The notes below the pieces were generated by a model that searched no databases, was not told the DNA's origin, and saw only the letters and a program-made list of their open reading frames with translations. From a virus, in IMG/VR virus record IMGVR_UViG_3300048597_000675, positions 1 through 30,250 of that record: DNA of 30,250 nt, one strand, 5' to 3'. Each line of letters opens with the position of its first letter. The first letter of the stretch is position 1. This document shows positions 6,338 through 26,691 of this stretch, in pieces. A program made the position numbers and the translations under genes.

Positions 6338-6480
6338 GATCGGGCTCTGCGGCTACAGATTGCGTTCGAATGGGATGGGACCTGCAATCGTTGAAGATTG
6401 CGACCAGTGAGAGACAAACCCGCACGGTTTCTCGCCTTGATGCGTTGTATTGCCCTCAGGACTGGAGCGATCTGGATCCT

Positions 6481-6500
6481 GACTGGCAAATTGGCCAGTC
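6481..6500. repeat. Perfect 7-bp inverted repeat
   Basis: GACTGGC pairs with GCCAGTC across a 6-nt loop (AAATTG). It is 18 nt from a second, larger hairpin, so the two could form an RNA double stem-loop on either strand. No T-tract follows. Confidence 0.5.
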
Positions 6501-6517
6501 GCTGCGACGGCATACGA

Positions 6518-6555
6518 AGGACCAGCCGGTGATGGCCCCCTCAACGGCTGGTCCT
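6518..6555. repeat. Perfect 11-bp inverted repeat
   Basis: AGGACCAGCCG pairs with CGGCTGGTCCT across a 16-nt loop. An 11-bp uninterrupted stem in a short non-coding gap is not expected by chance. It may be a transcription barrier, an RNA-processing site in the tail transcript, or the mark of a small mobile repeat. Confidence 0.55.
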
Positions 6556-6726
6556 GTCTGTAGATTGGCCTGTCTGCCGCATGCTGTAGATGCGGTGACC
6601 AGGATACCGATCGCGGGACATCGTGACGCAGCTCCGTCGCATGCGAAGCAGGCCAATCCACTTTCCGCGTCGCAAATCGAGGCGTAAGCTGTTTCGACCT
6701 TGAGAGCAAACTTGGAGGATCATGCG

Positions 6727-6900
6727 ATGTCCAAGATTCTGAAGTGTGGGGACCTGATGGCAGGCTGTAGTTTCGTGGCCCGCGGAGAAACCGAGAAGGA
6801 AGTTCTCCAGGCGGCAGCCGAGCATGCCAAGAAAGCCCACGGGCTCGATGCGACGCCCGAGCTCGTCGAAAAGGTCAAGGCCGCAATCAGGAATGCCTGA
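6727..6900 (+). CDS. DUF1059 family small protein
   Basis: A 57-residue protein matching the DUF1059 pattern almost end to end: a start with KCGDLMAGCSFVARGETEKEV, then AAEHAKKAHG, then a C-terminal helix ELVEKVKAAIRNA. The two Cys (residues 7 and 13) and the His pair are the conserved features. The family's function is not known to me. The ATG at 6727 is fixed by a GGAGGA ribosome site 7 nt upstream. It is on the strand opposite to the phage tail genes and surrounded by non-coding DNA, so it is likely cargo with its own promoter, although I did not find a clear one. Confidence 0.88.
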   Translation: MSKILKCGDLMAGCSFVARGETEKEVLQAAAEHAKKAHGLDATPELVEKVKAAIRNA

Positions 6901-7354
6901 GGCCTGAACCTCTGCTAACCTGCGGTCGATGACTGCAATCGCTGGCTCTGCCGTGTCCTGTGCGGAGTTGCTTTGCATTTGGTATGGCACATGGCAGCAA
7001 CACGACCGGGACGGGTCGAGGTCAATGCCATTCACGCACCGGTCGCTTGCACTGTCGTCCAAAGGGAATAGCATTCCGTCCAGGATTGGCTGGGCGCCAG
7101 TCCTTTCGACAGACGGTCGAAGCATGGTCGGGAGGACCGAAGCCGGGATCGATCCGCGACAGCCCCCAGCGGCGGATCGATCTCGACTTTATATCAGGTA
7201 CATGACTGTCGATCTCCATGCCATGTCCAGTGTTGTCGTGGCCTGCTCGGCTTTGTCTTTGATTTGATCGCCAGTGTTCCGTTCAGTCGACATTCGACGA
7301 CATAATGACTGACATATCCGATGTCAGGGGTGATTGAATCGGGAAAGCCGGGTG
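6901..7354. other. Non-coding gap downstream of the DUF1059 gene
   Basis: 454 nt between DUF1059 and the end of the tape-measure gene. No frame here has a ribosome site plus plausible protein composition. It contains a perfect 11-bp stem-loop (7147-7182) and a 6-bp inverted repeat TGACAT/ATGTCA at 7310-7326 close to the tape-measure stop. Confidence 0.6.
7147..7182. repeat. Perfect 11-bp inverted repeat
   Basis: GATCGATCCGC pairs with GCGGATCGATC across a 14-nt loop containing CCCCC. It lies 247 nt downstream of DUF1059 and has no long T-tract. With the hairpin at 6518-6555 it means the DUF1059 gene is bracketed by two strong but unrelated stem-loops. Confidence 0.55.
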
Positions 7355-10159
7355 TCAGCTCCCATACCAGCCCGGCTTCCGCCCGAGGGACTGGATCTTC
7401 CGTGCTGATGCAAAGCGGACCAACCGCTCCGCCGTCGCATCGGGCGCAAAGAGATCGGCGAAACGCTCCGTGCCGATGACAAGATCGAAGCTCTTGCCGG
7501 GAAGAGAAGCACTGCCCGTCGGAGCGATTGCAGGAGTCAGCATCGGCCGTGGCATCATCATCGAGCGGTTGAAGCTTTCGACCAATCCACCGAGGGCAAA
7601 CTTCGGAACGCCATTCATTCGTGACGGTTTCATGCGAAGGCCATTGATCGCCCGCAGAAAGTCGACACCATACTGCTGTACGGCCGCAGCGCGCACGATG
7701 AACTCGCCATGCGACAGGAAGGCCGGAATGCTATCGGAGGTCGAGGTTCCAGGACCCGAAACATAGCCGCCACGCGCGAAACCGTCGCCATCACCGCCGC
7801 TGCCTTGTGCCCGGAGCCTCGCGGCCTCCGCAATGGCGTGGCGGATCGAAGCAAGTATGGCCGCGATCGCCCGCTCGATGCTGGCTGCGGCCCGGTTGAC
7901 AGCATCGGCCACGCCTGTGAATCCTGCCTCAGCGATTCCCCTGATGCCCTGCATGATCTGCTCGATCTGTGCAGATGCCTCGACAAAGGGTTGGACCAGT
8001 GCTGCGGCGACAGCTGCTGCACCTTCGATATCGCCCGCAATCTGTGTCGCCCGCGCAATCGCGGCCCGGATCGCCTCGGCACTTGCAACGACGGCCTGGG
8101 TGGCACCCGACCAGGCCTGCAGAACATGATCGGCAAGTCCCGTCAGAACTGCCGTCGCACCGCTGACGATCCCATCCCAAATCGGCTGGATCGTTGCCGC
8201 GACCGCACTGGCCGCCTCGGTGATGGCCGCCCAGGTCAGTGAGGCCGCCGCGAATATTCCATTCCGCGCCAGGGTGACCGTCTCAGTGATGCCGGCCCAG
8301 ATGCCGGTCACGACCGTGATCAGCCCTGTTCGTGCGTCTGATAGAACAGTCGTGATGCCGATCCAGACATCGCGCCATGCCGTTGTCAGGCCCGTCCATG
8401 CGGTCTGTGACGCGGTCGTGAGGCCGGTCCAGACATCCGAGACAACGGTGACAATACCACCAAGCGCTGTCTCGGCGATGACGGTGAGTCCATCCCATAT
8501 ACTTGAGAAGATCGTCGTCAACCCGCTGAGCGCTGCCGAAGCTCCCGCTACGATCTGGTCCCAGAATCCATAGATCAGGGCGCCCAGCGCAATCACCCCA
8601 ACTGCAATCAGCCCCTGCGGCGAGAAGAAGGCCGCCAGCATCGGCAGCATGCGGAGAACAAGACTGATGCCGCTGGCAATCACCGGGAACAGCCGCACAA
8701 TCACCGCTCCTGCAGGCCCGATCAGCCGCAGGGCATTGACGAAGAGCATGAAGGACTGGGCACCCACCTTGACCACGGCGAAGAGCAGCCGGAAGATTCC
8801 CAGAAGCTTCAGGATCGTGGCTCCAACGAGGAGCTGATCCCCCGTCAGCTCCGTCCCGAAGAGCGTATTGAACGCACTGGCCACCAGCCCTGCCTGCTCC
8901 CGGATCACCTTGAAGGCCGGGATCAGCACGTTGACGAAGGTATCCCGGACCGCCAGTGCCGCATCCCGAAGATCGAGCAGCCACGTGTTGGAAACGGACT
9001 CATCCGGCGCCTGCGACAGGATGCTGACGAGATCGACGATGATCGATGACAGGCTCGACGCCAGTTGCTGCAGGACGCCACTGATTCTGTCAGAATTTGT
9101 TGCAAGTGCGTTCAGGATCGCATCCGTGGCCTGGATGATCGCAGGTGCCACCAGGGTTGCAAACTCGTTGGCATATTGCTCGAAGAGGAAGCCGACGAAG
9201 GCCAGTTCATCGGCAGCTCGTCCTGCAATCGAAGTCGCCTCAGTGGTCGCCGTCAGCCCCAGGGCCTCGATCTGCTGCCGGTACTTCTCGATGCCTTTGG
9301 CACCCAGGTTCAGGAACGGGATCAGCTTCGGGCCGATCCGCTTGCCGAAGAGCTCGACCGACAATTGGGTCTTCTGGGCCCCATCCTCCATGCTGGCAAA
9401 CTGGGTGGCGACCGCCCGGAAAGCATCAACCGGCAGGATCTCCTGGCCGGGCTTCAAGCCGACGTTCTTCAGGATCCGCGACAGCGTCCTCGCACTTTCC
9501 GAGAGCTTCGCGGTCTCGCCTGCTCCCTGGCGGACCACCTGGCCATAGGTGCTGAAGCCCGAGATCACCTTGACGGTGCTGCTGGAGGCCTCCTCCATCG
9601 ACCCCGAGAACCGGACATTGCCGGCCGTGGCTTTGGCAGTCGTGCCCTGAAGTTCCTTCAGCGCCTCCCCGATGCTGATAAACCCCCGGCTGAGCGTGCC
9701 ACTGTCGATGCCGGAGGCCGTAGCGGCCGCCTGGAAGGTCTGGAGCTGGGTGACCGTCACCCCGAGGCTCGAGGCCAGGTCCCCCAGCTCATCGACCCGG
9801 TTCAGGCTGTTCCGGATGAAAGCACCTGCCGCAAAGGCAGCACCCGTCACGGCAACCGCAAACACCGTGACGCGGGCCGAGGTCGACGCAAAGGCGCTGC
9901 CAACATCAGCCAGTCCCTGGCTCAGCCCGGCAAAACTCGTCGTCACCCGGACCCCGGCCGTCCGGAGATCGGCAAAGGATGTCCGAAGACGCCCGAACTG
10001 GGTGGCAAATCCAGTTCCCAGGCTCACCCGGCTGAAGGCCTGTTCCAGCTTCCGGGCCGAGCGCTCGCCTTCCTCCCCCAGGCTTCGGAGCTGGCGCAGG
10101 ATCTCTTCGCCACCTTCCAGCCGGATCGACTGGTTGATGACATTGCGACCGCTGGCCAT
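7355..10159 (-). CDS. Tail tape measure protein
   Basis: A 934-residue, helix-rich, Ala-rich protein, the longest gene in the window, placed after the tail tube and chaperone genes as expected for the tape measure that sets tail length and is the scaffold for tube assembly. The N-terminus has a coiled-coil region (GGEEILRQLRSLGEEGERSARKL), residues about 80-330 carry the family core (FIRNSLNRVDELGDLASSLGVT, LFGKRIGPKLIPFL), and hydrophobic helices lie around 455-520. Residues 555-653 consist of nine tandem 11-residue repeats of the type W-x-G-[LI]-T-x6. Near the C-terminus is the phage motif FARGGYVSGPGTSTSDSIPA with FLSHGEFI. Its start overlaps the DUF6441 stop by 1 nt (TGATG) and has a GGGGGA site. 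Confidence 0.95.
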   Translation of the reverse strand: MASGRNVINQSIRLEGGEEILRQLRSLGEEGERSARKLEQAFSRVSLGTGFATQFGRLRTSFADLRTAGVRVTTSFAGLSQGLADVGSAFASTSARVTVFAVAVTGAAFAAGAFIRNSLNRVDELGDLASSLGVTVTQLQTFQAAATASGIDSGTLSRGFISIGEALKELQGTTAKATAGNVRFSGSMEEASSSTVKVISGFSTYGQVVRQGAGETAKLSESARTLSRILKNVGLKPGQEILPVDAFRAVATQFASMEDGAQKTQLSVELFGKRIGPKLIPFLNLGAKGIEKYRQQIEALGLTATTEATSIAGRAADELAFVGFLFEQYANEFATLVAPAIIQATDAILNALATNSDRISGVLQQLASSLSSIIVDLVSILSQAPDESVSNTWLLDLRDAALAVRDTFVNVLIPAFKVIREQAGLVASAFNTLFGTELTGDQLLVGATILKLLGIFRLLFAVVKVGAQSFMLFVNALRLIGPAGAVIVRLFPVIASGISLVLRMLPMLAAFFSPQGLIAVGVIALGALIYGFWDQIVAGASAALSGLTTIFSSIWDGLTVIAETALGGIVTVVSDVWTGLTTASQTAWTGLTTAWRDVWIGITTVLSDARTGLITVVTGIWAGITETVTLARNGIFAAASLTWAAITEAASAVAATIQPIWDGIVSGATAVLTGLADHVLQAWSGATQAVVASAEAIRAAIARATQIAGDIEGAAAVAAALVQPFVEASAQIEQIMQGIRGIAEAGFTGVADAVNRAAASIERAIAAILASIRHAIAEAARLRAQGSGGDGDGFARGGYVSGPGTSTSDSIPAFLSHGEFIVRAAAVQQYGVDFLRAINGLRMKPSRMNGVPKFALGGLVESFNRSMMMPRPMLTPAIAPTGSASLPGKSFDLVIGTERFADLFAPDATAERLVRFASARKIQSLGRKPGWYGS
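8201..8497 (-). repeat. Nine tandem 11-codon repeats in the tape measure gene
   Basis: The encoded units begin W-D-G-L-T, L-G-G-I-V, W-T-G-L-T, W-T-G-L-T, W-I-G-I-T, R-T-G-L-I, W-A-G-I-T, R-N-G-I-F and W-A-A-I-T, each exactly 11 residues (33 nt). This hendecad pattern is compatible with a regular helical rod in which repeat number would change tail length. Confidence 0.8.
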
Positions 10160-10797
10160 CAGGTCCCCCGGAAGTTCTGGGCATAGAGTTCAGGAAGCCG
10201 GTCCCGCGCCCGGCGGATGGCCTTAGTGATGTTCAGCCGCTTGCGGATCGAGACGCTGTCGATCCCGACGAACAAGGGCACGGACGTCGTCCGCACACCG
10301 CCCCGGGCCGCAGCCCGGAGTGCTGACAAGGTCACCTTCGCGCGCTTGCCGGTCTTGGTCGCCCCCGTCTTCGCCACCAGCAGCGGTCGCTTGCCGGGTC
10401 GCTTCACATATTGCAGAGGGCCGATCTCCTTCTGATACCGCTCCGGCGTCATGCGATACCGTCCCGACCGCTTCGGCGTCGCGGGCAGCGGCGCCCACAT
10501 GCGGGGTCGCCCCCGGATCGTGGCCCCCTCCTCGAAGACCCCGGCATAGGGGATCTTGTGGAAGATCTGGGCGGCCGCCTTCAAACTGGCTCCCTTCTTC
10601 GGGTAGACATTGAGACGCAACGCCTTGGCAAACTTGCTGCCGAGCCCTGCGCTCTGGATGTTGGCGCGGGCGTCGGTCTTGGCCAGTTCACCGGCTGCTG
10701 CGACGGCGGTCTGTGCCGCTTCTTCGATTGCCTGGGCAGGCGCCAGAAATGCGCGCTCGAAGATCCCCGGTTCGGAGCGGTAAACGATCCTGCGCAT
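10159..10797 (-). CDS. DUF6441 family phage protein
   Basis: A 212-residue basic protein. The central segment with AKALRLNVYPKKGASLKAAAQIFHKIPYAGVFEEGATIRGR and a Trp-Ala-Pro-Leu-Pro motif fits my recollection of DUF6441, proteins found in tail modules of alphaproteobacterial phages and of unknown exact role (possibly tail completion). The first 50 residues are helical with an Ala-rich stretch. The start at 10797 is chosen because AGAGGAG stands 8 nt upstream; a longer frame to 10845 has no ribosome site. The stop overlaps the tape-measure start by 1 nt. Its upstream neighbour is the inserted cyclase, so its natural partner is probably the chaperone gene ending at 12692. Confidence 0.75.
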   Translation of the reverse strand: MRRIVYRSEPGIFERAFLAPAQAIEEAAQTAVAAAGELAKTDARANIQSAGLGSKFAKALRLNVYPKKGASLKAAAQIFHKIPYAGVFEEGATIRGRPRMWAPLPATPKRSGRYRMTPERYQKEIGPLQYVKRPGKRPLLVAKTGATKTGKRAKVTLSALRAAARGGVRTTSVPLFVGIDSVSIRKRLNITKAIRRARDRLPELYAQNFRGT

Positions 10798-10895
10798 CGT
10801 CGGGCTCCTCTGATCACGACATGTTGCGCCACTGCGTCGTGGCAAGACTCAGCAATCAGTGATGCTGCTGGGGAGTAAGCCAATTCCAAGTCGAG

Positions 10896-12254
10896 CTATT
10901 CCAGATCCGCAATCCGAGCGAAAAGCACTAGCTGCTCCTTGCGCCCGCCTAGAGGTTCCCGGCCAATCTCCTTCCAGTCCCTTCCCGGTCCGACAGGATC
11001 CAGAACTTGTCCAGAAACAAGCAAGGGCACACGATATACCTTTGTGGCTTGCTCAATCTTGGCTGCCACATTCACGGTATCACCAAGTACGGTGAACTCG
11101 ATCCTTCGCGCATCGCCGACGAGTCCCCAGTAGATTTCGCCGGCATGGATGCCGATTCCGATGCGGACCGGCGGATCGAAGTCGCGCTTGATGTTCCACT
11201 GATCGATGTAGCCAAGCAGGCGAATGGCGAACGAAATGGCACGCTGTCCTTCATCGCCCCTGATCTCCGGCACGCCGAACACCACCAGGGCACCATCGCC
11301 AATGAACTTGTCGACAACGCCGCCGTACTCGGCCGCCGCGCGCATCACCCGACGCCTGAAAGACGATATGAAAATGGAGAGCCGCTCCGGATCCATCTTC
11401 TCTGCCAGCGCGGTTGAAGCCCGGATGTCGGCAAAGAGGATCACCGCATTCTGGCGGCGACCCTGCCGCCATTGCTCGAGGCCGGCGCCTTCGACCAGCG
11501 GCGCGATTTCGGCCGGCAGGAAGCGCGAAAGATCCATGCGCCGCACCGTCTCGTCGACGGCGCGGAGGAGCAGGCGACGGGATCGCAGGATGACCAGCGT
11601 CGTGATCAGTCCAACGAGCAGAAGCATTACCGCCCGCATGATGTAAGGCGACAGCGAATGCAGTGAAGCGATGCTCGCAGCCTGGTTCGCCGGTGCTCCC
11701 GTCGAATCGAGGACCGGACGGAAACCGAGGTCAACGGCGACAACCGCAAGCGTGAGCAGCATGGCTGCCGTAGCCCAGAGCTGGACGGTCGGGCGGTACC
11801 GCAAGGCGCCGACTGCGAGAGCGAGCGGCGCGACCCAGATCACCGGAATAGTCGATATCCAGTTCCCGCCGAGCCCGATATTCGCAAGGCTCACATGCAG
11901 GCTGAGGCCAAGCACTGCGGCATCTGCCGTCACGAGCAGATAGGCCGTCCAGCGTCGAAAGAGGCCGCGTGACACAAGGACAAACGACATGACCCCCAAG
12001 GCGATATAGGCGCCGACGGTCGTTAGCCCGGTCGCAAAGTTCATGGGCCGATCGCCGTCCAGCAGATCAGCGCCGGATGAGACGAAGAGGCCCGAGATCA
12101 ACAGCGCGAGGCCCACGGCAATCCGCACCCAGCCGACCGTATACTCACCCTCAAGCTCCGACACCTGAAGCAACTGCTCCACGGAGGTTCGACTGGCACC
12201 CCCTTCGTCTCTGGTGTCCGCGGCGCTCACAGTTGGCTTCGGTTCCTCTGTCAA
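10896..12254 (-). CDS. Membrane-bound class III nucleotidyl cyclase
   Basis: A 452-residue protein with a soluble N-terminus, six predicted membrane helices (about residues 41-60, 74-95, 102-120, 132-151, 158-176, 203-223) and a cytosolic class III adenylyl/guanylyl cyclase domain (about 262-450). Metal-binding aspartates are Asp276 (LFADIRAS) and Asp320 (KFIGDG); Lys316 and Thr388 (EFTVLGDTVN) fit ATP rather than GTP as substrate. Asn395 is present, but the usual transition-state Arg four residues later is Lys399. It would make cAMP at the membrane. It is not a phage structural gene, yet shares the late-gene strand, lying between the tail chaperone pair and DUF6441. The TTG start is uncertain: no strong ribosome site is seen, and GTG codons at about residues 25 and 31 are alternatives. 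Confidence 0.9.
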   Translation of the reverse strand: MTEEPKPTVSAADTRDEGGASRTSVEQLLQVSELEGEYTVGWVRIAVGLALLISGLFVSSGADLLDGDRPMNFATGLTTVGAYIALGVMSFVLVSRGLFRRWTAYLLVTADAAVLGLSLHVSLANIGLGGNWISTIPVIWVAPLALAVGALRYRPTVQLWATAAMLLTLAVVAVDLGFRPVLDSTGAPANQAASIASLHSLSPYIMRAVMLLLVGLITTLVILRSRRLLLRAVDETVRRMDLSRFLPAEIAPLVEGAGLEQWRQGRRQNAVILFADIRASTALAEKMDPERLSIFISSFRRRVMRAAAEYGGVVDKFIGDGALVVFGVPEIRGDEGQRAISFAIRLLGYIDQWNIKRDFDPPVRIGIGIHAGEIYWGLVGDARRIEFTVLGDTVNVAAKIEQATKVYRVPLLVSGQVLDPVGPGRDWKEIGREPLGGRKEQLVLFARIADLE

Positions 12255-12691
12255 AGAGTGGACTTACCCTGCGGCCCTCGACCTGCTTGGGCGGGTCACA
12301 GTATGACACAGTCCCTGGTCGGTCGAGAAATGCAAGTGGGCGTGAATAGTTGCCGCGGCCACGGAGTGGATATCGCATGAAGTATTGTGTCTGAACCGAC
12401 ACCCAAGGCTTAGCTGAACTCCTTGGTGCTCCCAAGCAAGCGTTCTGCATCGCGATAGCCTCAATCGTGATGGGTATCGAACCCTTCCAATCAAGGAACC
12501 CAACGACTGACACGGCTCTGCCGAACAAGTCTGGAGCCAACGGCCATCATGCGACCGGAGAGACCTCTTATCGTCGTTCACGAGAATGTCTCACCCGTCA
12601 GTTCGCCCGATTCATATGGTTAAGCGGATCATGCCGGATGCTGCGCCTTCACCTGCTGCATCTCGGTGAGAGGCCTGTACCCTTGGTCAAT
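12255..12691. other. Non-coding gap upstream of the cyclase
   Basis: 437 nt without a supported gene. It must hold the cyclase 5' region and the right junction of the cyclase insertion. Around 12401-12437 the segments CCAAGG, CCTTGG and CCCAAG can pair in two mutually exclusive ways. A clear promoter was not recognised, and no direct repeat with the other side of the cyclase (10798-10895) was found by eye. Confidence 0.55.
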
Positions 12692-12874
12692 TCACCTTTT
12701 GCTGCCGAGCTCCCGAAGCAGCCGCTTGACCTCCTTTGGCTCCCCGCGCGCCGCAAGCGCCTGAAGTGCCAGACTGTCGGCCCTCTCCTTCGATACCCGC
12801 GCCTGCGCCACCTTCAGGAACCCTGCAATCTGCCGGGGCGTGTAGCTCCAGACATCTTGGGAACCGTGCCCCAT
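12692..12874 (-). CDS. GT-like extension ORF of tail assembly chaperone
   Basis: A 60-codon frame with good protein character: GSQDVWSYTPRQIAGFL, a basic helix AQARVSKERADSLALQAL, and a terminal helix EPKEVKRLLREL. Proteins of this kind (W-x-x-T-P-R-Q-I-x-x-F-L) follow tail-tube genes and precede the tape measure. The frame stays open upstream, without any ATG or GTG nearby, as AELAEAIEALIAMGHG, overlapping the end of the previous gene in the -1 register. It is therefore likely the second half of a frameshift product, or else a reinitiation product starting at 12874. A slippery heptamer at 12973-12979 would yield a 203-residue fusion. Role: chaperone coating the tape measure (inferred from lambda G/GT). 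Confidence 0.72.
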   Translation of the reverse strand: MGHGSQDVWSYTPRQIAGFLKVAQARVSKERADSLALQALAARGEPKEVKRLLRELGSKR

Positions 12875-12888
12875 GGCAATGAGGGCCT

Positions 12889-13302
12889 CTATGGCTTCGG
12901 CGAGCTCGGCTCCGGCATCCCGGAACCGCCGCCGCCTGCGGGCCTGAGCCCCAGCCGGGCTAGCTTGTCGACGAAAGGGCCAAGACCCTGCGGCATGGTG
13001 AGTGTCATGATGGCGGCGAGAAGCTCGGCCTGGTCATCCAGACCCAGACGACCCGCCGCCTTCTCCGCTTCCGCTTCACCCGCCTGACCGCAGCCGGCCG
13101 CGATCACGGCGGCAACAATGTCGCCACCCAGTGCCAGGAGCTGGTCAAGACCCACTTCCCGGCCTGAAATGAGTGCGCGGAGTTCCGGGAAGCGGAGCAG
13201 AAGCTGCGCCAGCCCCCTGACCGACACACCGGTGACCTCGATGGGCTGATTACGGATCGTGACGGCTTGGTTAAGGGGTGCAATATCAAGAAGTCCGACC
13301 AT
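12889..13302 (-). CDS. Tail assembly chaperone, G-like
   Basis: A 137-residue, mostly helical protein directly after the tail tube gene, the place of lambda gene G. It opens with a short beta segment (NQAVTIRNQPIEVTGVSVRGLAQLLLRFPELRALI), has a hydrophobic Ala-rich helix (GGDIVAAVIAAGCG), and ends in a Gly/Pro-rich tail (residues 122-137) that looks unfolded, as if the true end of the long form lay in another frame. It is expected to bind the tape measure during assembly. AGGGAG lies about 10 nt before the ATG at 13302. Confidence 0.78.
   Translation of the reverse strand: MVGLLDIAPLNQAVTIRNQPIEVTGVSVRGLAQLLLRFPELRALISGREVGLDQLLALGGDIVAAVIAAGCGQAGEAEAEKAAGRLGLDDQAELLAAIMTLTMPQGLGPFVDKLARLGLRPAGGGGSGMPEPSSPKP
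12973..12979 (-). other. Candidate -1 ribosomal frameshift heptamer
   Basis: Read on the minus strand the seven bases are C CCT TTC, the canonical X-XXY-YYZ form in the correct phase of the G-like frame. Slipping back one base enters the frame of the downstream ORF, which is open from here to its stop at 12692. The product would be 110 + 93 = 203 residues. The geometry is seen in the sequence; use in the cell is inferred from lambda G/GT. Confidence 0.5.
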
Positions 13303-13318
13303 GTCATGTCTCTCCCTG

Positions 13319-14092
13319 TCAGGCTGCGGCGATCACAGCGGCGGTTGCGGCCGACGTCGCCGTTGTGGAGCCCGCGGCATTTGTGGCAGTGACCGCGACA
13401 CTGAGGGCATCACCGACATCGCCTGCCACCGGCGTGTAGGTGGCACCCGTGGCGCCGGAGATGTTCACGCCTGCGTTCTTCCACTGGTAGGTGAAGACTG
13501 GGGTCCCGCTCCATTCACCCACTATGGCCACCAGCGGCTCGCCCTCCTGGGCGATGCCGGCAATCGACGGCAGGACGGTGTTGACGGGGACACTCTCGCC
13601 GAGGGCGGTGATGGTCCCGAAGGATCCCCCTGAGATCAGGACGTCACCCGTCAGCTCGATCGTCCCCCACTCGTCTGACAACAGCGAGATTGAGGACGAG
13701 GGCACGAACTCGACCGCGGGGAAGACCCATTCGTACTTGGGTCCCACTTCATTGGTCCCGGTGAACTTGAGCGACCCCTTGATCGCGTTGCTGTCGAAGA
13801 TTTCGGTGAGGCTCTGGCCCCCAACAATGGCATTGGTGCCGAGCACGGCCAGCGCAATGTTGTCACGGGTCCATTCATCCAGCACCAGGCGGACGGTTCC
13901 CGATTTCTGGATCACGATGGACTTGTCCTTGGTCCGGACCCCTTCGCGTGACGAGAAGTGATCCAGCTTCTCCAGTTCGGGGGTAAACTCGAACTCGGTG
14001 CAGTTTCCCATGTCGGCATAGGCGCCAGCACCATCCTTGCGGAAGGACACAATACCCTTGCCGACGGTGTAATTGTTGATCGAAGCAGTCAT
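13319..14092 (-). CDS. Major tail tube protein with C-terminal Ig-like domain
   Basis: A 257-residue protein. Residues 1-160 form the beta-sandwich tube subunit (YTVGKGIVSFRKDG, FTPELEKLDHFSSREGVRTKD, then PAVEFVPSSSISLLSDEWGTIELTGDVL). Residues about 165-250 are a separate Ig-like domain with YQWKNAGVNISGATG and a TYTPVAGDVG motif, as in lambda gpV and other siphovirus tubes; it would project from the tail surface and may bind surfaces weakly. Position before the G-like chaperone and after the tail terminator fits. GGAG lies 8 nt before the ATG. Confidence 0.92.
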   Translation of the reverse strand: MTASINNYTVGKGIVSFRKDGAGAYADMGNCTEFEFTPELEKLDHFSSREGVRTKDKSIVIQKSGTVRLVLDEWTRDNIALAVLGTNAIVGGQSLTEIFDSNAIKGSLKFTGTNEVGPKYEWVFPAVEFVPSSSISLLSDEWGTIELTGDVLISGGSFGTITALGESVPVNTVLPSIAGIAQEGEPLVAIVGEWSGTPVFTYQWKNAGVNISGATGATYTPVAGDVGDALSVAVTATNAAGSTTATSAATAAVIAAA

Positions 14093-14193
14093 ATGTGGGC
14101 TCCATCTGAGGGACTTGCCGTCTCACGACGGGGGTTCGCGCCTTGCCCAAGGGCCTGGAAGGCAGAAGGAACAGATGGCCGAAGATGTGCTGG

Positions 14194-14643
14194 TCAAAGT
14201 TCATCCGGCCGCAGAATGTAGGAGAAAGTGAAGGAGAGACCCATCTCGGCCTCCATGGTGCGGCCGCGGGCAAGCCCCGTGGCGCAGCCCTCGTAGCGGA
14301 TGTCACCATTGGGGCCGACAATCCCGGCCAGCTCGGAGTCCGTCAGCACCGTCTTGATGAAGGCAGCCCTGAAGCCGTTGATGGCGGTGCCGACAGCTTC
14401 GGGCTTCGCGCCGAGCATCAGGTAGATCTCCGGGGTCATGCCAATCCGCCGCGGGGCATTGGGACGCCTGGTCAGTCCTGCGGGATCCGCATCCTCGGCC
14501 GCCTCGTCGGCATCGAAAATGACGATGCACGGCCGCTGCCGGTCGCTGATCTCGTCCGTGTTGCGGAAAGCTGCAGCAATTCCGGGCAGGCCCTGGGCAA
14601 CGCCCAAAAGACGGCCAAGGATCTGCTCACGCTTGTCGGTCAT
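14194..14643 (-). CDS. Phage tail terminator-like protein
   Basis: A 149-residue protein between connector and tube genes, where lambda gpU-type tail terminators lie. N-terminal helix (REQILGRLLGVAQGLPGI), central strand (CIVIFDADEAAE), a segment MTPEIYLMLGAKPEAVGTAINGF, and a C-terminal membrane-free beta strand (SFTFSYIL) fit a gpU-like alpha/beta fold that caps the tube. Identification rests on size, order and pattern; sequence similarity to lambda U is not obvious. The start ATG overlaps the previous stop by 4 nt. Confidence 0.72.
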   Translation of the reverse strand: MTDKREQILGRLLGVAQGLPGIAAAFRNTDEISDRQRPCIVIFDADEAAEDADPAGLTRRPNAPRRIGMTPEIYLMLGAKPEAVGTAINGFRAAFIKTVLTDSELAGIVGPNGDIRYEGCATGLARGRTMEAEMGLSFTFSYILRPDEL

Positions 14644-14987
14644 GCGGTGTCCTCGATCAGGAACAGATAGAGTTCACCCTCGGCCTCACCAGACGGCGCC
14701 GGCTTCGGCATCGTCGCCTTGACTCGCCAGGCTCGATCCCCCAGCACCAGCTGAGCGTCCTCGAGGTCGGCCGCATCAAATCCCTTCGATGCGAGATCCG
14801 CAGTGCGAGTGGTCACCGCCGGCCGGATGGTCTTGACGTCGATCGAGGACGCCTCCGCAACCTCGACACCCCGGGTCTGGTCGATCACGGTCAGCGCGAC
14901 CCTGTCGCCGTAGAGGCAGACGAAGGTCGCCTGCACCCCGAACACCCGGTAGATCGGGGCGTAGAGGAGCGATGCGAAATCGATCAT
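14640..14987 (-). CDS. Head-tail connector-region protein
   Basis: A 115-residue protein starting MIDFASLLYAPIYRVFGV, followed by beta strands typical of the short connector proteins (gpFII or stopper-like) that sit between the portal and the tail in lambda-type phages. It has VALTVIDQTRGVEV and a C-terminal YLFLIEDT strand. The exact connector class is uncertain. The ATG at 14987 is used; the longer TTG start at 15008 lacks support. The 3' end overlaps the terminator gene by 4 nt (ATGA). Confidence 0.72.
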   Translation of the reverse strand: MIDFASLLYAPIYRVFGVQATFVCLYGDRVALTVIDQTRGVEVAEASSIDVKTIRPAVTTRTADLASKGFDAADLEDAQLVLGDRAWRVKATMPKPAPSGEAEGELYLFLIEDTA

Positions 14988-15027
14988 GCTGATACTCAAA
15001 GGTCCCAAGTCAAGGCGGCAGAACGCT

Positions 15028-15198
15028 TCAGGAGTTGATCACCGTCCGGCGCCCGGTTGGCAGGGCCATCGGCAGATCGGTCACACCGGAGATGATCATC
15101 AACCGCACATTCGAGAGGCGTGTCTGCGTTTCATTCACTGGCGAACTCGTCTCCGCCACGACAAGACTCGACGTGGTGACCCGGATCGTGTCCGCCAT
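15028..15198 (-). CDS. 56-residue phage protein, unknown function
   Basis: The frame ATG (15198) to TGA (15028) encodes MADTIRVTTSSLVVAETSSP and 36 further residues ending in RTVINS. It is beta-prone, without Cys or membrane segment. Support for a real gene is its place: its ATG overlaps the stop of the LamG-like gene by 1 nt (TGATG), the same coupling used elsewhere in this operon, and it fills an otherwise empty 190-nt gap. No family was recognised; a virion decoration or connector part is possible. Confidence 0.6.
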   Translation of the reverse strand: MADTIRVTTSSLVVAETSSPVNETQTRLSNVRLMIISGVTDLPMALPTGRRTVINS

Positions 15199-16310
15199 CA
15201 GACAAACTCCACGCCGAACTCCGAGGCCTCGATGTTGGCCTTTGACCAGGCATTGCCCGTTGCCGGGTTGAGCCCACAGAAGTCCTCGGCCTTCACGTAA
15301 GACGTTGTCGCCGTCCTGGCAGCACCATTGCGAACCGTACCGCCGCTGTCCTTCAACCTGTTGCGCCAGGCCTGCGTGCCGCTGTCGATCCTGGCCACAC
15401 TTTCCACCTGAACGCCGATGATGCTGGCAGGTGTCCAGCCCATGCTGGCGGTCCTGTAGTCGTCGACTTGGCCCGAGGTTGTCGCAGCGACATAGGTGGC
15501 ATCATCATCCTGGGTAGGATCATCGACCGCCGCAAAGTTGGCCCCCGCATTCGGCACCCACTGTGACAGCGCGCCATCGGCCGTTGGCAGCACGCGGCGC
15601 AGACGATGTTCGCCCGGCAGATGGCCGGTGAAGTCGGCCCCGCTGTCATCCCAGATGATCAGGTCGTCGATCCAGAGCAGATTGCCGCCATTGCCCGCCG
15701 TGCTGTTCGAATTGCAGCCCGCAATCACGACGCGGTCGAAGCTGTCGAAGTCGCCGCACACGGCGTCCGACGTATCGCCACTGACCACGGTCTGCTCGAT
15801 GATCTCGCTTCCGTCGATCCACATCCGGGCGCTTCCGCTTGTCGTGCTGACCTGGAGGGCCGTCTCGACGTGATGCCAGTTCCCGTCATTGATGCCGCGG
15901 GTCCTCGTCGGTGGCCGACCCGAGACAATCTGGCCGGTGGCCTGCGCGTCGTCGAACCGGGTGTGGTAGAGGCCGTTGCTGCCGGCGAAGCCGAAGTCAT
16001 AGCCCCAGTGGCTGTAGAAGCGATCGGGTGTTCCGTTCCGCAGCTGCAGGATGGGCCTGGTGCCGGTGACCGAGAAGCCGGTCAGCAAGCAGCGGATGTG
16101 ATAGGCCATCCGCAAGGTGCTCCCCGCGGCCGGTGCCTGCTTCAGGAGCCGGATATGCCCGGTCGAGAGCGCCGCAGCGCGTGCCGCACCGCCCCCGAAC
16201 CGGCCAGCGGCGGGTTCATAGGTCCCGCCGCCGCTGATGTAACCACCGGCGGCGCGGTATTTGGCCGTCGTGTCATAGCCGTCGAAGTGCTCGCAGAAGA
16301 GCAGTGCCAT
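15198..16310 (-). CDS. LamG/concanavalin-like virion protein, second copy
   Basis: A 370-residue beta-rich protein whose N-terminus is MALLFCEHFDGYDTTAKY. Residues about 130-230 have the LamG/concanavalin-like jelly-roll pattern: NDGNWHHVETALQVSTTSG, SARMWIDGSEI, then NLLWIDDLIIWDD. The last 130 residues hold a second conserved block (HRLRRVLPTADGALSQW, then TASMGWTPASIIGVQV). It is paralogous to the gene just upstream (16310-17401) with the same block order. A role in capsid or tail decoration or sugar binding is inferred. Start overlaps the upstream stop by 1 nt. Confidence 0.78.
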   Translation of the reverse strand: MALLFCEHFDGYDTTAKYRAAGGYISGGGTYEPAAGRFGGGAARAAALSTGHIRLLKQAPAAGSTLRMAYHIRCLLTGFSVTGTRPILQLRNGTPDRFYSHWGYDFGFAGSNGLYHTRFDDAQATGQIVSGRPPTRTRGINDGNWHHVETALQVSTTSGSARMWIDGSEIIEQTVVSGDTSDAVCGDFDSFDRVVIAGCNSNSTAGNGGNLLWIDDLIIWDDSGADFTGHLPGEHRLRRVLPTADGALSQWVPNAGANFAAVDDPTQDDDATYVAATTSGQVDDYRTASMGWTPASIIGVQVESVARIDSGTQAWRNRLKDSGGTVRNGAARTATTSYVKAEDFCGLNPATGNAWSKANIEASEFGVEFV

Positions 16311-17401
16311 CAGGTCACCCGCTCGAAGCCGGCCTCAAGTCCGGCCAACAGCTTGGCCCTGGTCCAGCGGGACCCGGTCAGGGGATCGCGGATCAGCTCG
16401 AGGCGCTCGGCCCGATAAGTCGGGTCGACGCTGACAGTGGGACCGGTCAGGACCATGCCACCCCGTGTTGCCTTGATGCGGCCCGTATGGGCCAGGAGAC
16501 CCTCGCGGCGCACCAGGGCCTCGGCATAGACACCATAGATCTCCGCGGGGTTGAAGGGGATGGTGTTGATCCGGAACAGGTCCTCGCCAACTGCCGTTGC
16601 GGAGGTGTAGGATCCATCCTTGTCGCGGATGACATCATCGACGTTCTCGACGTTCGAACCCGACAGCGGCGTGAAGTCATTCACGCTGCCATTGGCATCC
16701 GGCAGAACGGTTCGGATGCGGTGCCGGTCGGTGAGACGGCCGGTGAAGGCATCTCCCTCATCATCCCAGATGATCACATCATCCAAGTAGGTGCCGGTGT
16801 TCCCGCTGTTCGAACAGGACCCGCAGAGCAGGACGTGATCCATCACGGAGAAGTCCCCGCTTGCCGCGTCGCTGGTGTCGCCCGTGAAACTGATGTCGGC
16901 AACGCCATCCACCCAGGTCCGAACCGTGCCAGAGCTTGTGCCGATGAGGAACTCAACCTCGACGTGACGCCAGGCATTATCCCCCAGCGGAATCGTGCCA
17001 ATCGCGGCCTGGCCGGGAGATGACGCGTCATCGAACTTCCGGACGCTCAGATAGACATTGGGCTGAGTGCCCAGCAGATAGAGACTCCACCAGCGGGTGA
17101 TACTGTTGAGTGCCCCGACGAGGTTGAAGAAGGGCCGCCAGACCGTCGTGCTGAAGACGGCTGTACCACTGCCATAAGTCCTGAGCCAGAACGCCGTCCG
17201 GATCAGGGAGCCCAACGGTGTGCCGGTGAGCCCGAATCCCATGCCGCTGCTCAGGTCACTGCCAACAAGGCATCCGTCTCCCCAGTTGCTGAGCGTGTTC
17301 GCGGATCCCAGTGCGGCGCCTGCATTGATGCTGCGTGTTGCATTTGCGAGATCGCTGCCGCTGGCCCAGCCGTCAAAGCCTTCGGCAAAGAGCAATGCCA
17401 T
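16310..17401 (-). CDS. LamG/concanavalin-like virion protein, first copy
   Basis: A 363-residue paralogue of the next gene, beginning [20 protein letters not shown]. Equivalent blocks are WRHVEVEFLIGTSSGTVRTWVDG, TYLDDVIIWDDEGDAFTGRL, HRIRTVLPDANGSVNDFTP, and a C-terminal region VYAEALVRREG. Between blocks the two copies have diverged strongly, which suggests an old duplication. It lies between the collagen-like fibre gene (stop/start overlap at 17401) and the second copy, so all three probably build the same external structure. Function is inferred from fold pattern and place only. Confidence 0.78.
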   Translation of the reverse strand: MALLFAEGFDGWASGSDLANATRSINAGAALGSANTLSNWGDGCLVGSDLSSGMGFGLTGTPLGSLIRTAFWLRTYGSGTAVFSTTVWRPFFNLVGALNSITRWWSLYLLGTQPNVYLSVRKFDDASSPGQAAIGTIPLGDNAWRHVEVEFLIGTSSGTVRTWVDGVADISFTGDTSDAASGDFSVMDHVLLCGSCSNSGNTGTYLDDVIIWDDEGDAFTGRLTDRHRIRTVLPDANGSVNDFTPLSGSNVENVDDVIRDKDGSYTSATAVGEDLFRINTIPFNPAEIYGVYAEALVRREGLLAHTGRIKATRGGMVLTGPTVSVDPTYRAERLELIRDPLTGSRWTRAKLLAGLEAGFERVT

Positions 17402-19110
17402 CAGTGGACCTGTCCTGTTGCCTCGAAGGTGAAGAAGAGATCGGCCAGTGTGGCATCCGGAGATCCGGGTGCCACGAGTTCCAGATGGTCCCCGCTCGCC
17501 ATGGCGAAGCCTGCAATCGACACATAGCTCGCAACCGTGCCTGCCGCAGCAAAGCGCACCGTGCCGACACTGATGCCGTTCTTCTGGAGATCGAAGTCCG
17601 CCTGTGCTGCTGCCGCCGTCTTGGCCTTGATCACCGATCCCAACATCGATGCCGGAAACGACAGGGATTCGTTTGCCAGGAAGGCAAAGACGACGACGCT
17701 TGCTCCCGGCGCACCACCGAAGGTGCCCATGAACTTCGGCTTCCGGGCTTTTAGCGGGTGGACATAGACCTTGTCGCCATTATCCTGCAGCACGATCGCA
17801 CGATCATCGATCGCGAAGTCGTGGCTGACGCCGCCTGGCAGCACCAGGTTTGCGCCGTGCGTCATTGTCGCTGCGACATCGAAGATCAGCATACAATGAC
17901 GGCCATCGACAGCTGAACTCCAGTCGATGTCTGTGATCGGCCCGGTGCCCGCGGTGATGTGGATATGGCTGCCCGGCCCGAGCGTGATAGTGTCTGCAAG
18001 GGCAACATTCGCGCCCTTCATCTCGGGCTTCAGCGGGCCTTCGGTGACGGTGTTGTTCCGCCAGTAAAGCCCCGCCGAGGTCTGCCAGAGGTCACCATCT
18101 ACAGGCGATGACGGCGCAACGCCCGTGTTACCGCCAAGATTGATCAATGCCCCGCCCGCCACAGACGGATTAAACGTCTTCTTCGCTGTATAGGTCTCAG
18201 CCTTGTTGATGAAACTCGTGAAGTACCAGACACTCGCAAGATAGATGACGAGATTCGTGCCGCCGGACGCATAGACATCGCCATGCACTGGCGATGAAGG
18301 TGCCGTGCCGCCGGGGATGCGAAATGATGCAGATGTACCGGTTCCGGGTTTGAAGTCCACACGACCGGTCAGGGCGCCGCCGCCGAGTGCAAGGTAGGTC
18401 GCGGCGAGGTAGGCGATCAGGTCGGTCTGATCGGTGATGGTTCCACCGAGATCGCCCCAGTCGCTGGCGCCACCGGACGTGGGGGTAACCCACTGGGTGT
18501 TGTAGTCGGTGGCATCGATCTTCGCGAGAATCTGACCCGTCGTGCCGCCGATCGGAACGCCGACGCCATTGGATCCCGGCGCACCATCGGCGCCGGCAGG
18601 ACCAGTAGGACCCATCGGCCCAGCGGGTCCTTGAATGCCCGCCGCCCCATCTGCGCCGGCAGGACCCTCAGGCCCAGCAGGTCCGGTTGCACCAATAGGT
18701 CCTTCTGGACCCATGGGGCCGGTAGGACCTGGTGGACCTTGAGGACCTGGTGCGCCCTCAGGGCCTGCGGCACCTTCTGGACCTGCTGGACCAGTTGGAC
18801 CCGCAGGACCGGCTGGTCCATCGGCACCCGGAGCCCCCGCGGGTCCCTGTGGTCCGATTGTCCCTTGTGCACCGACTGGCCCCGCGGGGCCCTGCGGCCC
18901 GGTTGGTCCAGCCGCACCATCGGCACCAGCTGGGCCTACGGGACCCGGGGGACCTTGAGGACCTGCGGGGCCGATCGCGCCATCGAGGCCGTCAACACCT
19001 TGTGGACCGGCCGGGCCCTGGCGACCGATGGGACCTTGAGGACCCGGAACGGCAATCTCGACGACAGCGGGTTTGTCCGGAACAATGATCTCGATCACCT
19101 CAAGCGTCAT
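17401..19110 (-). CDS. Collagen-like phage fibre protein
   Basis: A 569-residue protein. Residues 1-22 are an attachment peptide; from residue 23 about 54 uninterrupted Gly-X-Y triplets follow (to about residue 184), rich in GPA, GPQ, GPE and GAD, which should form a collagen triple helix. A beta-rich trimerisation part then carries two related segments, [20 protein letters not shown] and [18 protein letters not shown], and the C-terminus (about 460-569) is a separate globular domain that may contact a receptor. The ATG at 19110 lies 10 nt after AGGGG. The start codon is inside the left copy of a 13-nt direct repeat, so its ribosome site is supplied by the inserted nitric-oxide cassette. Confidence 0.9.
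18559..19044 (-). repeat. Gly-X-Y coding repeat (collagen-like)
   Basis: About 54 successive 9-nt units encode Gly-X-Y without interruption. X is mostly Pro or Ala. Such regions change length easily by slippage and recombination, so the triplet count may vary between relatives. Confidence 0.9.
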
Positions 19111-19111
19111 C
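19099..19111. repeat. 13-nt direct repeat, left copy
   Basis: The bases CTCAAGCGTCATC recur exactly at 21200-21212. On the minus strand this copy includes the fibre ATG (19110-19108) and its next codons ACG CTT. It marks the left limit of the nnrS-rrf2-ric' insertion. Confidence 0.85.
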
Positions 19112-19388
19112 GTTCGAACCCCTGAAGTGCCTTGAAAGAAATCATGCCCCATGTCGGAAATTTGAGTGCATCCCGGAGCCAATCAGCTTCCCGATCTCCG
19201 AGGTCAGATTGCAAGGGGCGAACCACCATCCAGCGCGGTCAATCTCGTACAAGGCCCTTGAATTTGAGTTTGGCGTTACGCAGCGCTGGGACTTGGACAA
19301 CATGACGCAACACGGATTTCAAACAGGCCAAACCCCACAGAAGCGACATGGCGGTTAGTGGTCCGTGATTTGGCGTATGAGTTTCAGG

Positions 19389-20588
19389 TCAAGATTGCGC
19401 GCGCCGACGCAGTACAAGGGGGCCAAACAAAACCGCGAATCCGCCGAAAGCCAAGATCCAGGCAAAAGCCGCCGCGATGTGAAACAACTCGGCCCAGGTT
19501 GGCAAGACGCCTGCAGCGGCGCGCAGGATAACAGCCGTGACGCAGGCCAAATAAAGGACGGTCGTACCACGACCCGCTGTCAGCGCCTGGCCGGTGTGAC
19601 CAAGGGTGGCGCGAGTCATGACGGCGAGTGTCATCAGACCAATCGTCCCGGCCATCCACAGATGCTGGCCCGCGGCGAGGCCCCAGAGTCCTGGCCAGAA
19701 AATGTCGGCGGCAACAGCGAAAGCACCCAGCGGCAGGAAGGCGTAACCGACATGAAGCACCAACACCAGTGGCTCCGCAGCGGTGCGCTCCCCGGCCCAG
19801 CGAGCGAGGCGGATCGCATGCATTGCGCCGGCGAGCGCCAGACCTGCACCACTCATGACATGGTCAGGAAAGACGACCCATAGAAGGAGCGCGACGATCA
19901 AGACGGCCAGCGCAACCACGTCGAAGCGTTGCATCGGTGAGGCCGGCATACGCCCGGCGTTGCGTCTAACCAGCCAGTTGCGCGTGAAGGAAGGCACGAT
20001 ACGCCCACCGATTAGCGCGATCAATGTGAGTACGGCGGACAGGCCGATGCGCAGACCGATGCCCTGCGCCGCGAAAACACCTTGCGCCGTCTCCACATGG
20101 AAGACGAGGTTACCCATGGCGAAGACGATGAGCAACAACAGTACAGGCAGGTTACGCCAGTTCTTGCCCGTGATGATCTCGCGCGCAATGACCGCGGCAA
20201 GCGCGGCCGGCAGTGCCAGATCGGCAAAAATAACGAGCAGCAGCGGCATCGACGCGGACAGCGCTACGGCGATGCGACCCATGATCCAGAGTGCAAAAAG
20301 GCCGCCCAGTGGCCATCCGACGATCGGCAGGCGGCCCGTCCAGTTCGGCACTGCGGTCAGCAGGAACCCCGCGATCACGGCACCGAGATACCCGTAGAGA
20401 AACTCATGCGCGTGCCAACTGACCGGATCAAACCGCGTCGGGAGGATGCTCATGCCGCTGAGCATCGGGATCCAGAACGCCATGGCGAGCGCTGCCCAGA
20501 GCGCCGCACCGAGGAAGAACGGCCGAAAGCCGTAGGTCAACAGCGCCGGGCCGCGCCAAGCGCGCATCTGTTCGGCAGAGGTGGTCAT
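19389..20588 (-). CDS. nnrS: NnrS family membrane protein (nitric-oxide response)
   Basis: A 399-residue, very hydrophobic protein with about 12 membrane helices, full length for NnrS. Family hallmarks are visible: YGFRPFFLGAALWAALAM at the start, WHAHEFLYGYLGAVIAGFLLTAVPNWTG, FHVETAQG, IGGRIVPSFTRNWL, then LHVGYAFLPLGA, AGQHLWMAGTIGLMTLAVMTRATLGHTG. The many conserved His residues fit the haem- and copper-binding reported for NnrS of Rhodobacter, which protects cells during nitric-oxide stress. Its ATG overlaps the Rrf2 stop by 4 nt (ATGA), so the two are co-transcribed and coupled. It is not a phage gene and lies inside the inserted block. Confidence 0.95.
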   Translation of the reverse strand: MTTSAEQMRAWRGPALLTYGFRPFFLGAALWAALAMAFWIPMLSGMSILPTRFDPVSWHAHEFLYGYLGAVIAGFLLTAVPNWTGRLPIVGWPLGGLFALWIMGRIAVALSASMPLLLVIFADLALPAALAAVIAREIITGKNWRNLPVLLLLIVFAMGNLVFHVETAQGVFAAQGIGLRIGLSAVLTLIALIGGRIVPSFTRNWLVRRNAGRMPASPMQRFDVVALAVLIVALLLWVVFPDHVMSGAGLALAGAMHAIRLARWAGERTAAEPLVLVLHVGYAFLPLGAFAVAADIFWPGLWGLAAGQHLWMAGTIGLMTLAVMTRATLGHTGQALTAGRGTTVLYLACVTAVILRAAAGVLPTWAELFHIAAAFAWILAFGGFAVLFGPLVLRRRAQS

Positions 20589-20884
20589 GGGGTCGCCGGC
20601 TCAGCGGGTTGGAGCCGTTCGACCATCGAAAACGGCTCTGCTGGCAAGGGCACCTCGTTGCCGAGTTGGCTCGCATCGGCTGCCTTGGCGAGCCAGAAGC
20701 CGCCCTGTCCGCGCCTCCTTTCGACGAAGCCCGTTTCCGCCAGACGCCGAACGATCTTGACGAGATGGTTCTGCGACAAACGGAACTCGTTCGCGACCTT
20801 GGCCGTGTTGAATAACCGCCCAGGCGGGCTGGTAAGTCGTATCAGGGCCCGCACTCCATCTTCGGTGAACTTCGCCGGCTGCAT
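20585..20884 (-). CDS. Truncated, cysteine-free Rrf2/NsrR-like regulator
   Basis: A 99-residue protein with the winged-helix DNA-binding part of Rrf2 regulators: helices around residues 24-52 (AKVANEFRLSQNHLVKIVRRL), then the wing GFVERRRGQGGFWLAK. Normal NsrR/RirA proteins have about 140-160 residues and three Cys that hold an iron-sulfur cluster. Here there is no Cys at all: the place of the usual VECF motif reads MVERLQP and the protein ends 10 residues later. DNA binding could be kept, but cluster-based nitric-oxide sensing should be lost. Neighbours (nnrS, ric') fit an NsrR ancestry. AGG lies 6 nt before the ATG. It may be a degenerate gene or a redox-independent regulator. Confidence 0.88.
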   Translation of the reverse strand: MQPAKFTEDGVRALIRLTSPPGRLFNTAKVANEFRLSQNHLVKIVRRLAETGFVERRRGQGGFWLAKAADASQLGNEVPLPAEPFSMVERLQPAEPATP

Positions 20885-20930: not shown

Positions 20931-20953
20931 AAGTTGCACTTAAAATAGCACTT
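20931..20953. promoter_or_regulatory. NsrR-box-like sequence
   Basis: A 23-nt partly palindromic, AT-rich site with the arms AAG-TTGCA-CTT and AAAT-AGCA-CTT. The left arm fits the E. coli NsrR half site (AAnATGCATTT) at eight of its ten fixed positions; the right arm fits with one base displaced. It overlaps the expected promoter of ric', 29 nt before its start. The adjacent Rrf2 gene is the natural candidate to bind here. Confidence 0.45.
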
Positions 20954-26481: not shown

Positions 26482-26691
26482 GTGGCTACAGGCACTGTTA
26501 AGTGGTTCAATTCCCAGAAGGGCTTCGGATTCATCGCACCAGACGGAGGTGGTCCGGACGTCTTTGTTCATGTCAGTGCCGTCGAGCGCGCAGGCCTCAG
26601 AAGCCTGAACGATGGACAGAAGGTTTCTTTTGAAGTCGTCACGGATCGCAAGAACGGCAAGTCGTCGGCTGACCAGCTGAAGACCCTGTAA
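26482..26691 (+). CDS. CspA-type cold-shock protein
   Basis: A 69-residue single cold-shock domain: [20 protein letters not shown] with RNP1 (KGFGFI, residues 13-18), and RNP2 (VFVHVS, residues 27-32). Such proteins bind single-stranded RNA and DNA and melt RNA structure. The start is GTG, with a GAGA-type weak ribosome site. Cold-shock genes in prophages are known from E. coli (cspB and cspF in Qin, cspI in Rac). It lies opposite to the late genes, followed by a hairpin with a T-rich tail inside the end of the terminase gene. Confidence 0.95.

What the first reader, a model, noticed from the sequence alone, without database searches (positions are those of the whole stretch)
10896..12254. 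Six-TM class III cyclase in the tail module, with Lys in place of the transition-state Arg
The cyclase stands in line with tail genes on the same strand, between chaperone and DUF6441 genes. Catalytic Asp276, Asp320 and Lys316 and Asn395 are present, but Arg (N-x3-R) is Lys399. Class III cyclases are known in anti-phage signalling (Pycsar), yet no effector gene is adjacent. It might modify host cAMP, or serve in superinfection exclusion at the membrane.
Basis: partly seen in the sequence, partly recalled or inferred. Interest (0 to 1): 0.6.

Follow-up and report, generated by a model that had tools for sequence, protein, structure and literature searches.

The report
Host-derived cyclase gene carried by phage
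A phage related to prophages of Rhizobiales (the bacterial order that includes rhizobia) carries, slotted between two of its tail genes, a gene for a membrane enzyme that probably makes cyclic AMP; bacteria such as Rhizobium have the same gene outside phages, so it looks like borrowed cargo that could alter the host rather than a part of the virus.

Summary
Window 10896-12254 (minus strand) encodes a 452-aa, six-helix membrane protein with a class III nucleotide cyclase domain. Asp276, Lys316, Asp320, Thr388 and Asn395 are present and N-x3-R reads N-x3-K (Lys399).

Its meaning changes on testing. (1) The Lys is not a phage feature: all 12 cellular orthologues from Rhizobium/Sinorhizobium/Ensifer that cover the site (57-60% identical, at non-phage sites) have it. 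Outgroups, 24 other class III cyclases of related genomes and 82 phage cyclases have Arg. The phage gene is sister to that clade. (2) The gene is not part of the tail module: in 27 of 28 measurable relatives the same gap is 203-424 bp, whereas here a private 1.9-kb insert fills it and in the 84%-identical sister phage an opposite-strand FAD oxidoreductase gene does. Other differences from the sister are also host-like genes (SMP-30, DUF1059, Rrf2-NnrS). (3) No Pycsar effector lies beside it.

Best reading: accessory cargo (a "moron") taken from a rhizobial-type donor, probably an active adenylyl cyclase that alters cAMP signalling in the lysogen. Activity and expression were not testable; the promoter scan found no sigma-70-like site. 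Interest modest; the Arg-to-Lys clade is a clean enzymology test.

The parts
10800..12720 (-). Private insert (cargo slot) between the tail assembly chaperone and DUF6441; no DNA match to the sister phage L116 here while both sides match at about 84%
   Evidence: blastn window vs L116: matches 7355-10799 and 12721-18624, nothing between; gap sizes in relatives
10896..12254 (-). Six-TM class III nucleotide cyclase, 452 aa
   Evidence: Foldseek matches Mtb Rv1625c/Cya 7yzk over 425 columns, TMq 0.51
11058..11060 (-). Codon of Lys399 (AAG), position of the transition-state Arg
   Evidence: conserved as Lys in Rhizobiaceae orthologues
11070..11072 (-). Codon of Asn395, transition-state Asn
11295..11309 (-). 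Lys316 (substrate) to Asp320 (metal), K-F-I-G-D
   Evidence: Lys316 and Asp320 invariant in the 25 aligned rows
11427..11429 (-). Codon of Asp276, first metal-binding Asp
12255..12691 (-). Leader of about 440 bp with no convincing gene; would hold a promoter of the cyclase if it has one; no sigma-70-like site or convincing FNR-like box found
10159..10797 (-). DUF6441 minor tail protein, downstream flank of the slot
   Evidence: Pfam 3.8e-31; Rhodobacter phage minor tail proteins
12692..13302 (-). Pre-tape-measure / tail assembly chaperone pair, upstream flank of the slot
   Evidence: Pfam Pre_tape_measure 4.4e-10; second short ORF 12692-12874

Best explanation
An accessory cargo gene (a 'moron') captured by a temperate-type alphaproteobacterial phage from a Rhizobiaceae-type donor and set into an intergenic slot of the late operon. 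The product is most likely a working membrane adenylyl cyclase of the Rv1625c/Cya layout: six TM helices as sensor/anchor, a helical linker, and a class III homodimer with a Lys/Thr (ATP-type) substrate pair and Lys instead of Arg at the transition-state site. Expressed in the lysogen, it would raise or re-route cAMP (CRP/Clr-type) signalling and so change host physiology, perhaps under low oxygen or energy stress. Shown here: identity, residues, insertion, clade, absence from relatives. Inferred: catalysis, product, expression in lysogeny, fitness effect.
For: Insertion: the preTMP-DUF6441 gap is 203-424 bp in 27 of 28 measurable relatives (683 in one), 2095 here, 1730 in sister L116, where an opposite-strand FAD oxidoreductase fills it. 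Host origin: full-length orthologues at 57-60% identity on Rhizobium/Sinorhizobium plasmids and genomes, beside phosphoketolase, acetate kinase, carbamate-kinase-type, USP and cytochrome genes, with none of the window's phage proteins detected beside them; the phage copy is sister to that clade, support 100/98. No near phage homologue in IMG/VR or INPHARED. Likely enzyme: all other catalytic residues invariant in the 25 aligned rows; dN/dS 0.13-0.21 within the Lys clade; catalytic domain 70-74% identical against 45-50% for the N-terminal part. Moron-like setting: other host-like genes at other slots, several on the opposite strand; accessory loci of this kind are known to act in lysogeny (PMC7067206).
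Against: No promoter or terminator found by consensus scan; the gene is on the late strand, so it could be made only in lytic growth. No integrase or repressor was identified in this 30-kb record; temperate life is inferred from a related prophage in a chromosomal contig (G083). I found no activity data for any Lys-clade member. dS between phage and host copies is near saturation, so selection on the phage branch itself is weakly measured.
Confidence: 0.68

Rival explanations
1. Pseudo-enzyme: loss of the transition-state Arg has ended catalysis, and the protein acts as a membrane sensor, dimer partner or decoy that dampens host cyclases.
For: N and R are described as highly conserved in most class III cyclases (PMC4215837); all 24 other class III cyclases of related genomes and 82 phage ones keep Arg.
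Against: Metal-binding Asp pair, Lys316, Thr388 and Asn395 are invariant in the Lys clade and the catalytic domain is the most conserved part under purifying selection. Lys keeps the charge. A natural cyclase lacking the Asn (Ma1120) is active, and restoring the Asn sharply lowers its activity (PMC4215837).
Confidence: 0.2
2. Membrane-level superinfection exclusion or defence (Pycsar-like): the cyclase senses another phage and signals.
For: PADLOC PycC models match the cyclase domain, best 1.2e-19; prophages often carry defence genes (general knowledge).
Against: The match is only to the shared catalytic fold; no effector gene on either side; ATP-type Lys/Thr pair; cellular orthologues sit in metabolic islands, not defence islands, where neighbours were read.
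Confidence: 0.07
3. The cyclase is used by the phage itself: cAMP made late in infection or in the lysogen steers lysis/lysogeny or late gene expression.
For: Same strand as the late genes; cAMP-CRP affects the lysis/lysogeny choice of known coliphages (general knowledge).
Against: Absent from the sister phage and other relatives; no excess of CRP- or Clr-like boxes in the window (7 against 10.4 expected; 21 against 19.0).
Confidence: 0.1
4. Passive hitch-hiker with no function in the phage, inserted by chance and on its way out.
For: Private to this phage; patchy in hosts (1 of 247 Rhizobiaceae genomes with a 60%-level match, the query's own centre genome).
Against: Open frame over 452 codons with all motifs kept despite about 40% amino-acid divergence from the nearest known copies.
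Confidence: 0.12

Closest known systems
Six-TM class III cyclases of Rhizobium/Sinorhizobium/Ensifer plasmids and chromosomes (e.g. WP_018246480.1)
   Same: Full-length orthology, 57-60% identity, six-TM layout, same N-x3-K motif
   Different: At non-phage sites beside fermentation and stress genes; here inserted between phage tail genes
Mycobacterium Cya / Rv1625c (7yzk, 7yzi)
   Same: Six TM helices plus class III domain; Foldseek match over 425 columns
   Different: Only about 19% identity; a mycobacterial signalling enzyme, not phage cargo; canonical N-x3-R (from general knowledge)
Class III cyclases of other phages (HTVC008M, Melnitz, hundreds in IMG/VR)
   Same: Cyclase domain on a phage genome, about 26-38% identity, mostly over the catalytic part
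   Different: Not matched over the membrane part; 82 of 82 read keep Arg; HTVC008M and Melnitz carry it beside curli genes
Prophage morons / accessory loci
   Same: Extra gene in an intergenic slot, absent or swapped in near relatives, host origin
   Different: Own promoter and expression in lysogeny not shown
Pycsar PycC
   Same: Class III-type catalytic domain
   Different: No effector partner; six-TM part outside the PycC matches; ATP-type substrate residues

Membership tests
Class III nucleotide cyclase | Guanylate_cyc catalytic domain above curated cut-off | tested here: met
   68.3 bits against 21.9; structural matches to CyaC, CyaB with Z about 24
Class III nucleotide cyclase | Two metal-binding Asp | tested here: met
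   D276 and D320
Class III nucleotide cyclase | Asn and Arg transition-state pair | tested here: not met
   Asn395 present, Arg replaced by Lys399. The pair is described as present in 'most' members, and natural exceptions such as Ma1120 exist (PMC4215837), so I treat it as typical rather than defining
Class III nucleotide cyclase | Makes a cyclic nucleotide | not testable with these tools
   needs an assay
Rv1625c/Cya-like membrane cyclase (layout) | Six TM helices in front of one catalytic domain | tested here: met
   Model helices; match to 7yzk over the whole length, TMq 0.51, rmsd 9.3
Prophage moron | Inserted in one phage, absent or replaced in near relatives | tested here: met
Prophage moron | Host or foreign origin, not part of the conserved virion gene set | tested here: met
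   Origin by tree; relatives lack it
Prophage moron | Own promoter/terminator and expression in lysogeny | tested here: inconclusive
   Consensus scan found none; it covers only sigma-70-like sites; no transcript data
Pycsar | Adjacent effector gene | tested here: not met
   Neighbours are tail genes; no convincing ORF in the gaps
Pycsar | Pyrimidine cyclase activity | not testable with these tools
   Lys/Thr pair suggests ATP; needs an assay

The most novel reading that the evidence does not exclude
The Rhizobiaceae/phage clade is a natural set of active class III cyclases in which Lys does the work of the otherwise near-universal transition-state Arg, and a phage has taken one as a lysogenic-conversion gene that puts a new cAMP input into its host.
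Probability: 0.35. Interest if true: 0.55.

Novelty: new member of a known kind. Interest (0 to 1): 0.35.

Why it matters
It gives a clean case of a phage carrying a complete host-type second-messenger enzyme as cargo, in a slot that a sister phage fills with an unrelated metabolic gene. The clade also offers a natural test of whether Arg in N-x3-R of class III cyclases can be replaced by Lys, which could be settled with one construct in an existing cyclase-free Sinorhizobium strain.

Tried and rejected
Close phage homologues of the cyclase: none in IMG/VR or INPHARED. FNR/FixK boxes at the cyclase: none convincing. CRP and Clr boxes: not above chance. Promoter/terminator scan of the slot: none. 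Repeats or insertion-sequence marks at the ends of the insert: none. Rfam: nothing in the window. Cargo genes from one host island: no homologue of the phage's other cargo or core proteins beside the cellular cyclases. Orthologue in the family of the related-prophage genome G083: only 35-40% matches. Composition as a mark of recent arrival: cyclase GC 0.62, GC3 0.72, like the phage core, so uninformative. Literature: no paper found on phage morons encoding class III cyclases or on natural Arg-to-Lys variants, but the library is open-access only and searches were few.

Full report
What was checked. The ORF at 10896-12254 on the minus strand is real: 452 aa, open throughout, Pfam Guanylate_cyc at 8.5e-19 over residues 266-410. 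Thr388 completes a Lys/Thr substrate pair, which by general knowledge of class IIIb enzymes points to ATP. An AlphaFold2 model from 25 aligned orthologues (mean pLDDT 78) shows six long helices, a linker and the cyclase domain. Solved class III domains match at Z about 24, and Mtb Rv1625c/Cya matches over the full length.

Lys399 is a clade trait, not a phage trait. tblastn against plasmids found full-length orthologues at 57-60% identity on Rhizobium and Sinorhizobium replicons, and the scan of 84,980 genomes gave 28 loci. Every Rhizobium/Sinorhizobium/Ensifer orthologue that covers the site (12 of 12) has N-x3-K; Microvirga, Methylobacterium and a betaproteobacterial relative have N-x3-R. 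Of 25 class III cyclases read from six genomes, only the orthologue itself has Lys. All 82 phage cyclases read have Arg. A maximum-likelihood tree puts the phage copy as sister to the Lys clade with support 100/98. The simplest reading is one Arg-to-Lys change before phage and rhizobial copies parted.

Is it still an enzyme? Within the Lys clade dN/dS is 0.13-0.21, and phage and host copies are 70-74% identical in the catalytic domain but 45-50% in the N-terminal part. Metal and substrate residues are invariant in all 25 aligned rows. That pattern argues against a decayed pseudo-enzyme, but it is inference. A precedent shows that this site pair is not absolute: Ma1120 lacks the Asn, is active, and loses activity when the Asn is put in (PMC4215837).

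The gene is cargo, not tail. A sister phage (L116, IMGVR_UViG_3300048597_000628; about 84% DNA identity) is collinear with the window but has no match over 10800-12720. In its place stands an opposite-strand gene for an FAD-dependent oxidoreductase (DAO, 1.2e-42). Across DUF6441-bearing relatives, the distance between pre-tape-measure and DUF6441 is 203-424 bp in 27 of 28 measurable cases and 683 bp in one. One of those, L244, looks like the same prophage as the G083 locus, so the independent number is slightly lower. The window (2095 bp) and L116 (1730 bp) are the exceptions. About 440 bp upstream and 100 bp downstream of the cyclase hold no convincing gene.

The same pattern at other slots. 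Other stretches where the window and the sister part company are also host-like genes: SMP-30/gluconolactonase at 1435-2319 (+), a DUF1059 gene inside an insert at 6340-7354 (+), and an Rrf2-NnrS pair at 19389-20884. A cold-shock gene on the opposite strand near the terminase is shared with L149 and the G083 prophage. More distant relatives carry a Fic gene (L154) or a small, apparently exported protein (L155) between cement and the next gene. This is the layout of phage accessory loci or morons; PMC7067206 describes them as host-affecting, often highly expressed in lysogeny, and calls a position antisense to the lytic genes characteristic. The cyclase itself is on the late strand.

How it most likely works. 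Shown: descent from the rhizobial Lys clade's sister branch, insertion in a slot, and maintenance of an intact cyclase. Inferred: expression in the lysogen from a promoter within 12255-12691, membrane insertion, dimerisation, ATP to cAMP, and a change in CRP/Clr-type regulation. The cellular orthologues stand beside phosphoketolase, acetate kinase, phosphotransacetylase, ornithine carbamoyltransferase, an amino acid kinase, universal stress and cytochrome genes, which hints at an energy or low-oxygen stress setting. The phage's NnrS cassette would fit such a setting, but the link is only suggestive, since no regulatory box joins the two.

Pycsar and exclusion. PADLOC PycC models hit the shared catalytic domain only, and no effector gene is adjacent, so Pycsar membership fails a defining feature. 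Exclusion remains possible without support.

Limits. The window is a whole 30,250-base virus record, probably a fragment, with no integrase identified. Promoter scans cover only sigma-70-like sites. The paper library is open-access only, so novelty of the Arg-to-Lys clade is not established.

Verdict. An ordinary kind of thing, phage cargo, with an unusual content: a host-type membrane cyclase of an Arg-to-Lys clade. New member of a known kind; interest 0.35.

Noticed in passing
window 19389-20884 (-): NnrS (Pfam 5.8e-105) preceded by a 99-aa Rrf2/NsrR-like regulator with no cysteine at all, so it lacks the Fe-S ligands of NsrR; an imperfect NsrR-like palindrome (16 of 22 positions, best in the window) lies at 20931-20953. 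Absent from sister phage L116.
   Followed up: partly
window 1435-2319 (+): SMP-30/gluconolactonase-type beta-propeller gene with a signal-like N-terminus, on the strand opposite to the phage genes, absent from L116.
   Followed up: partly
window 6340-7354: 1-kb insert between tail genes that abut exactly in L116; its only recognisable gene is a small DUF1059 protein at about 6724-6900 (+).
   Followed up: partly
window 26482-26691 (+): Cold-shock protein gene antisense to the late genes, between portal and terminase; also in L149 and the G083 prophage, so possibly a long-kept accessory gene.
   Followed up: partly
L154:4801-5985 (-), L155:4894-5340 (-): Fic-family protein and a small, apparently exported protein, each antisense, in the slot after the cement gene in more distant relatives.
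   Followed up: no
window 17401-19182 (-): Collagen-like triple-repeat protein, probably a tail fibre (Pfam Collagen 4.5e-24), also in L116.
   Followed up: no
L006, L007: Pelagibacter phage HTVC008M and Methylophilales phage Melnitz both carry a class III cyclase next to curli secretion genes (CsgG, CsgB/CsgF) and close to tail genes, a recurrent pairing.
   Followed up: no
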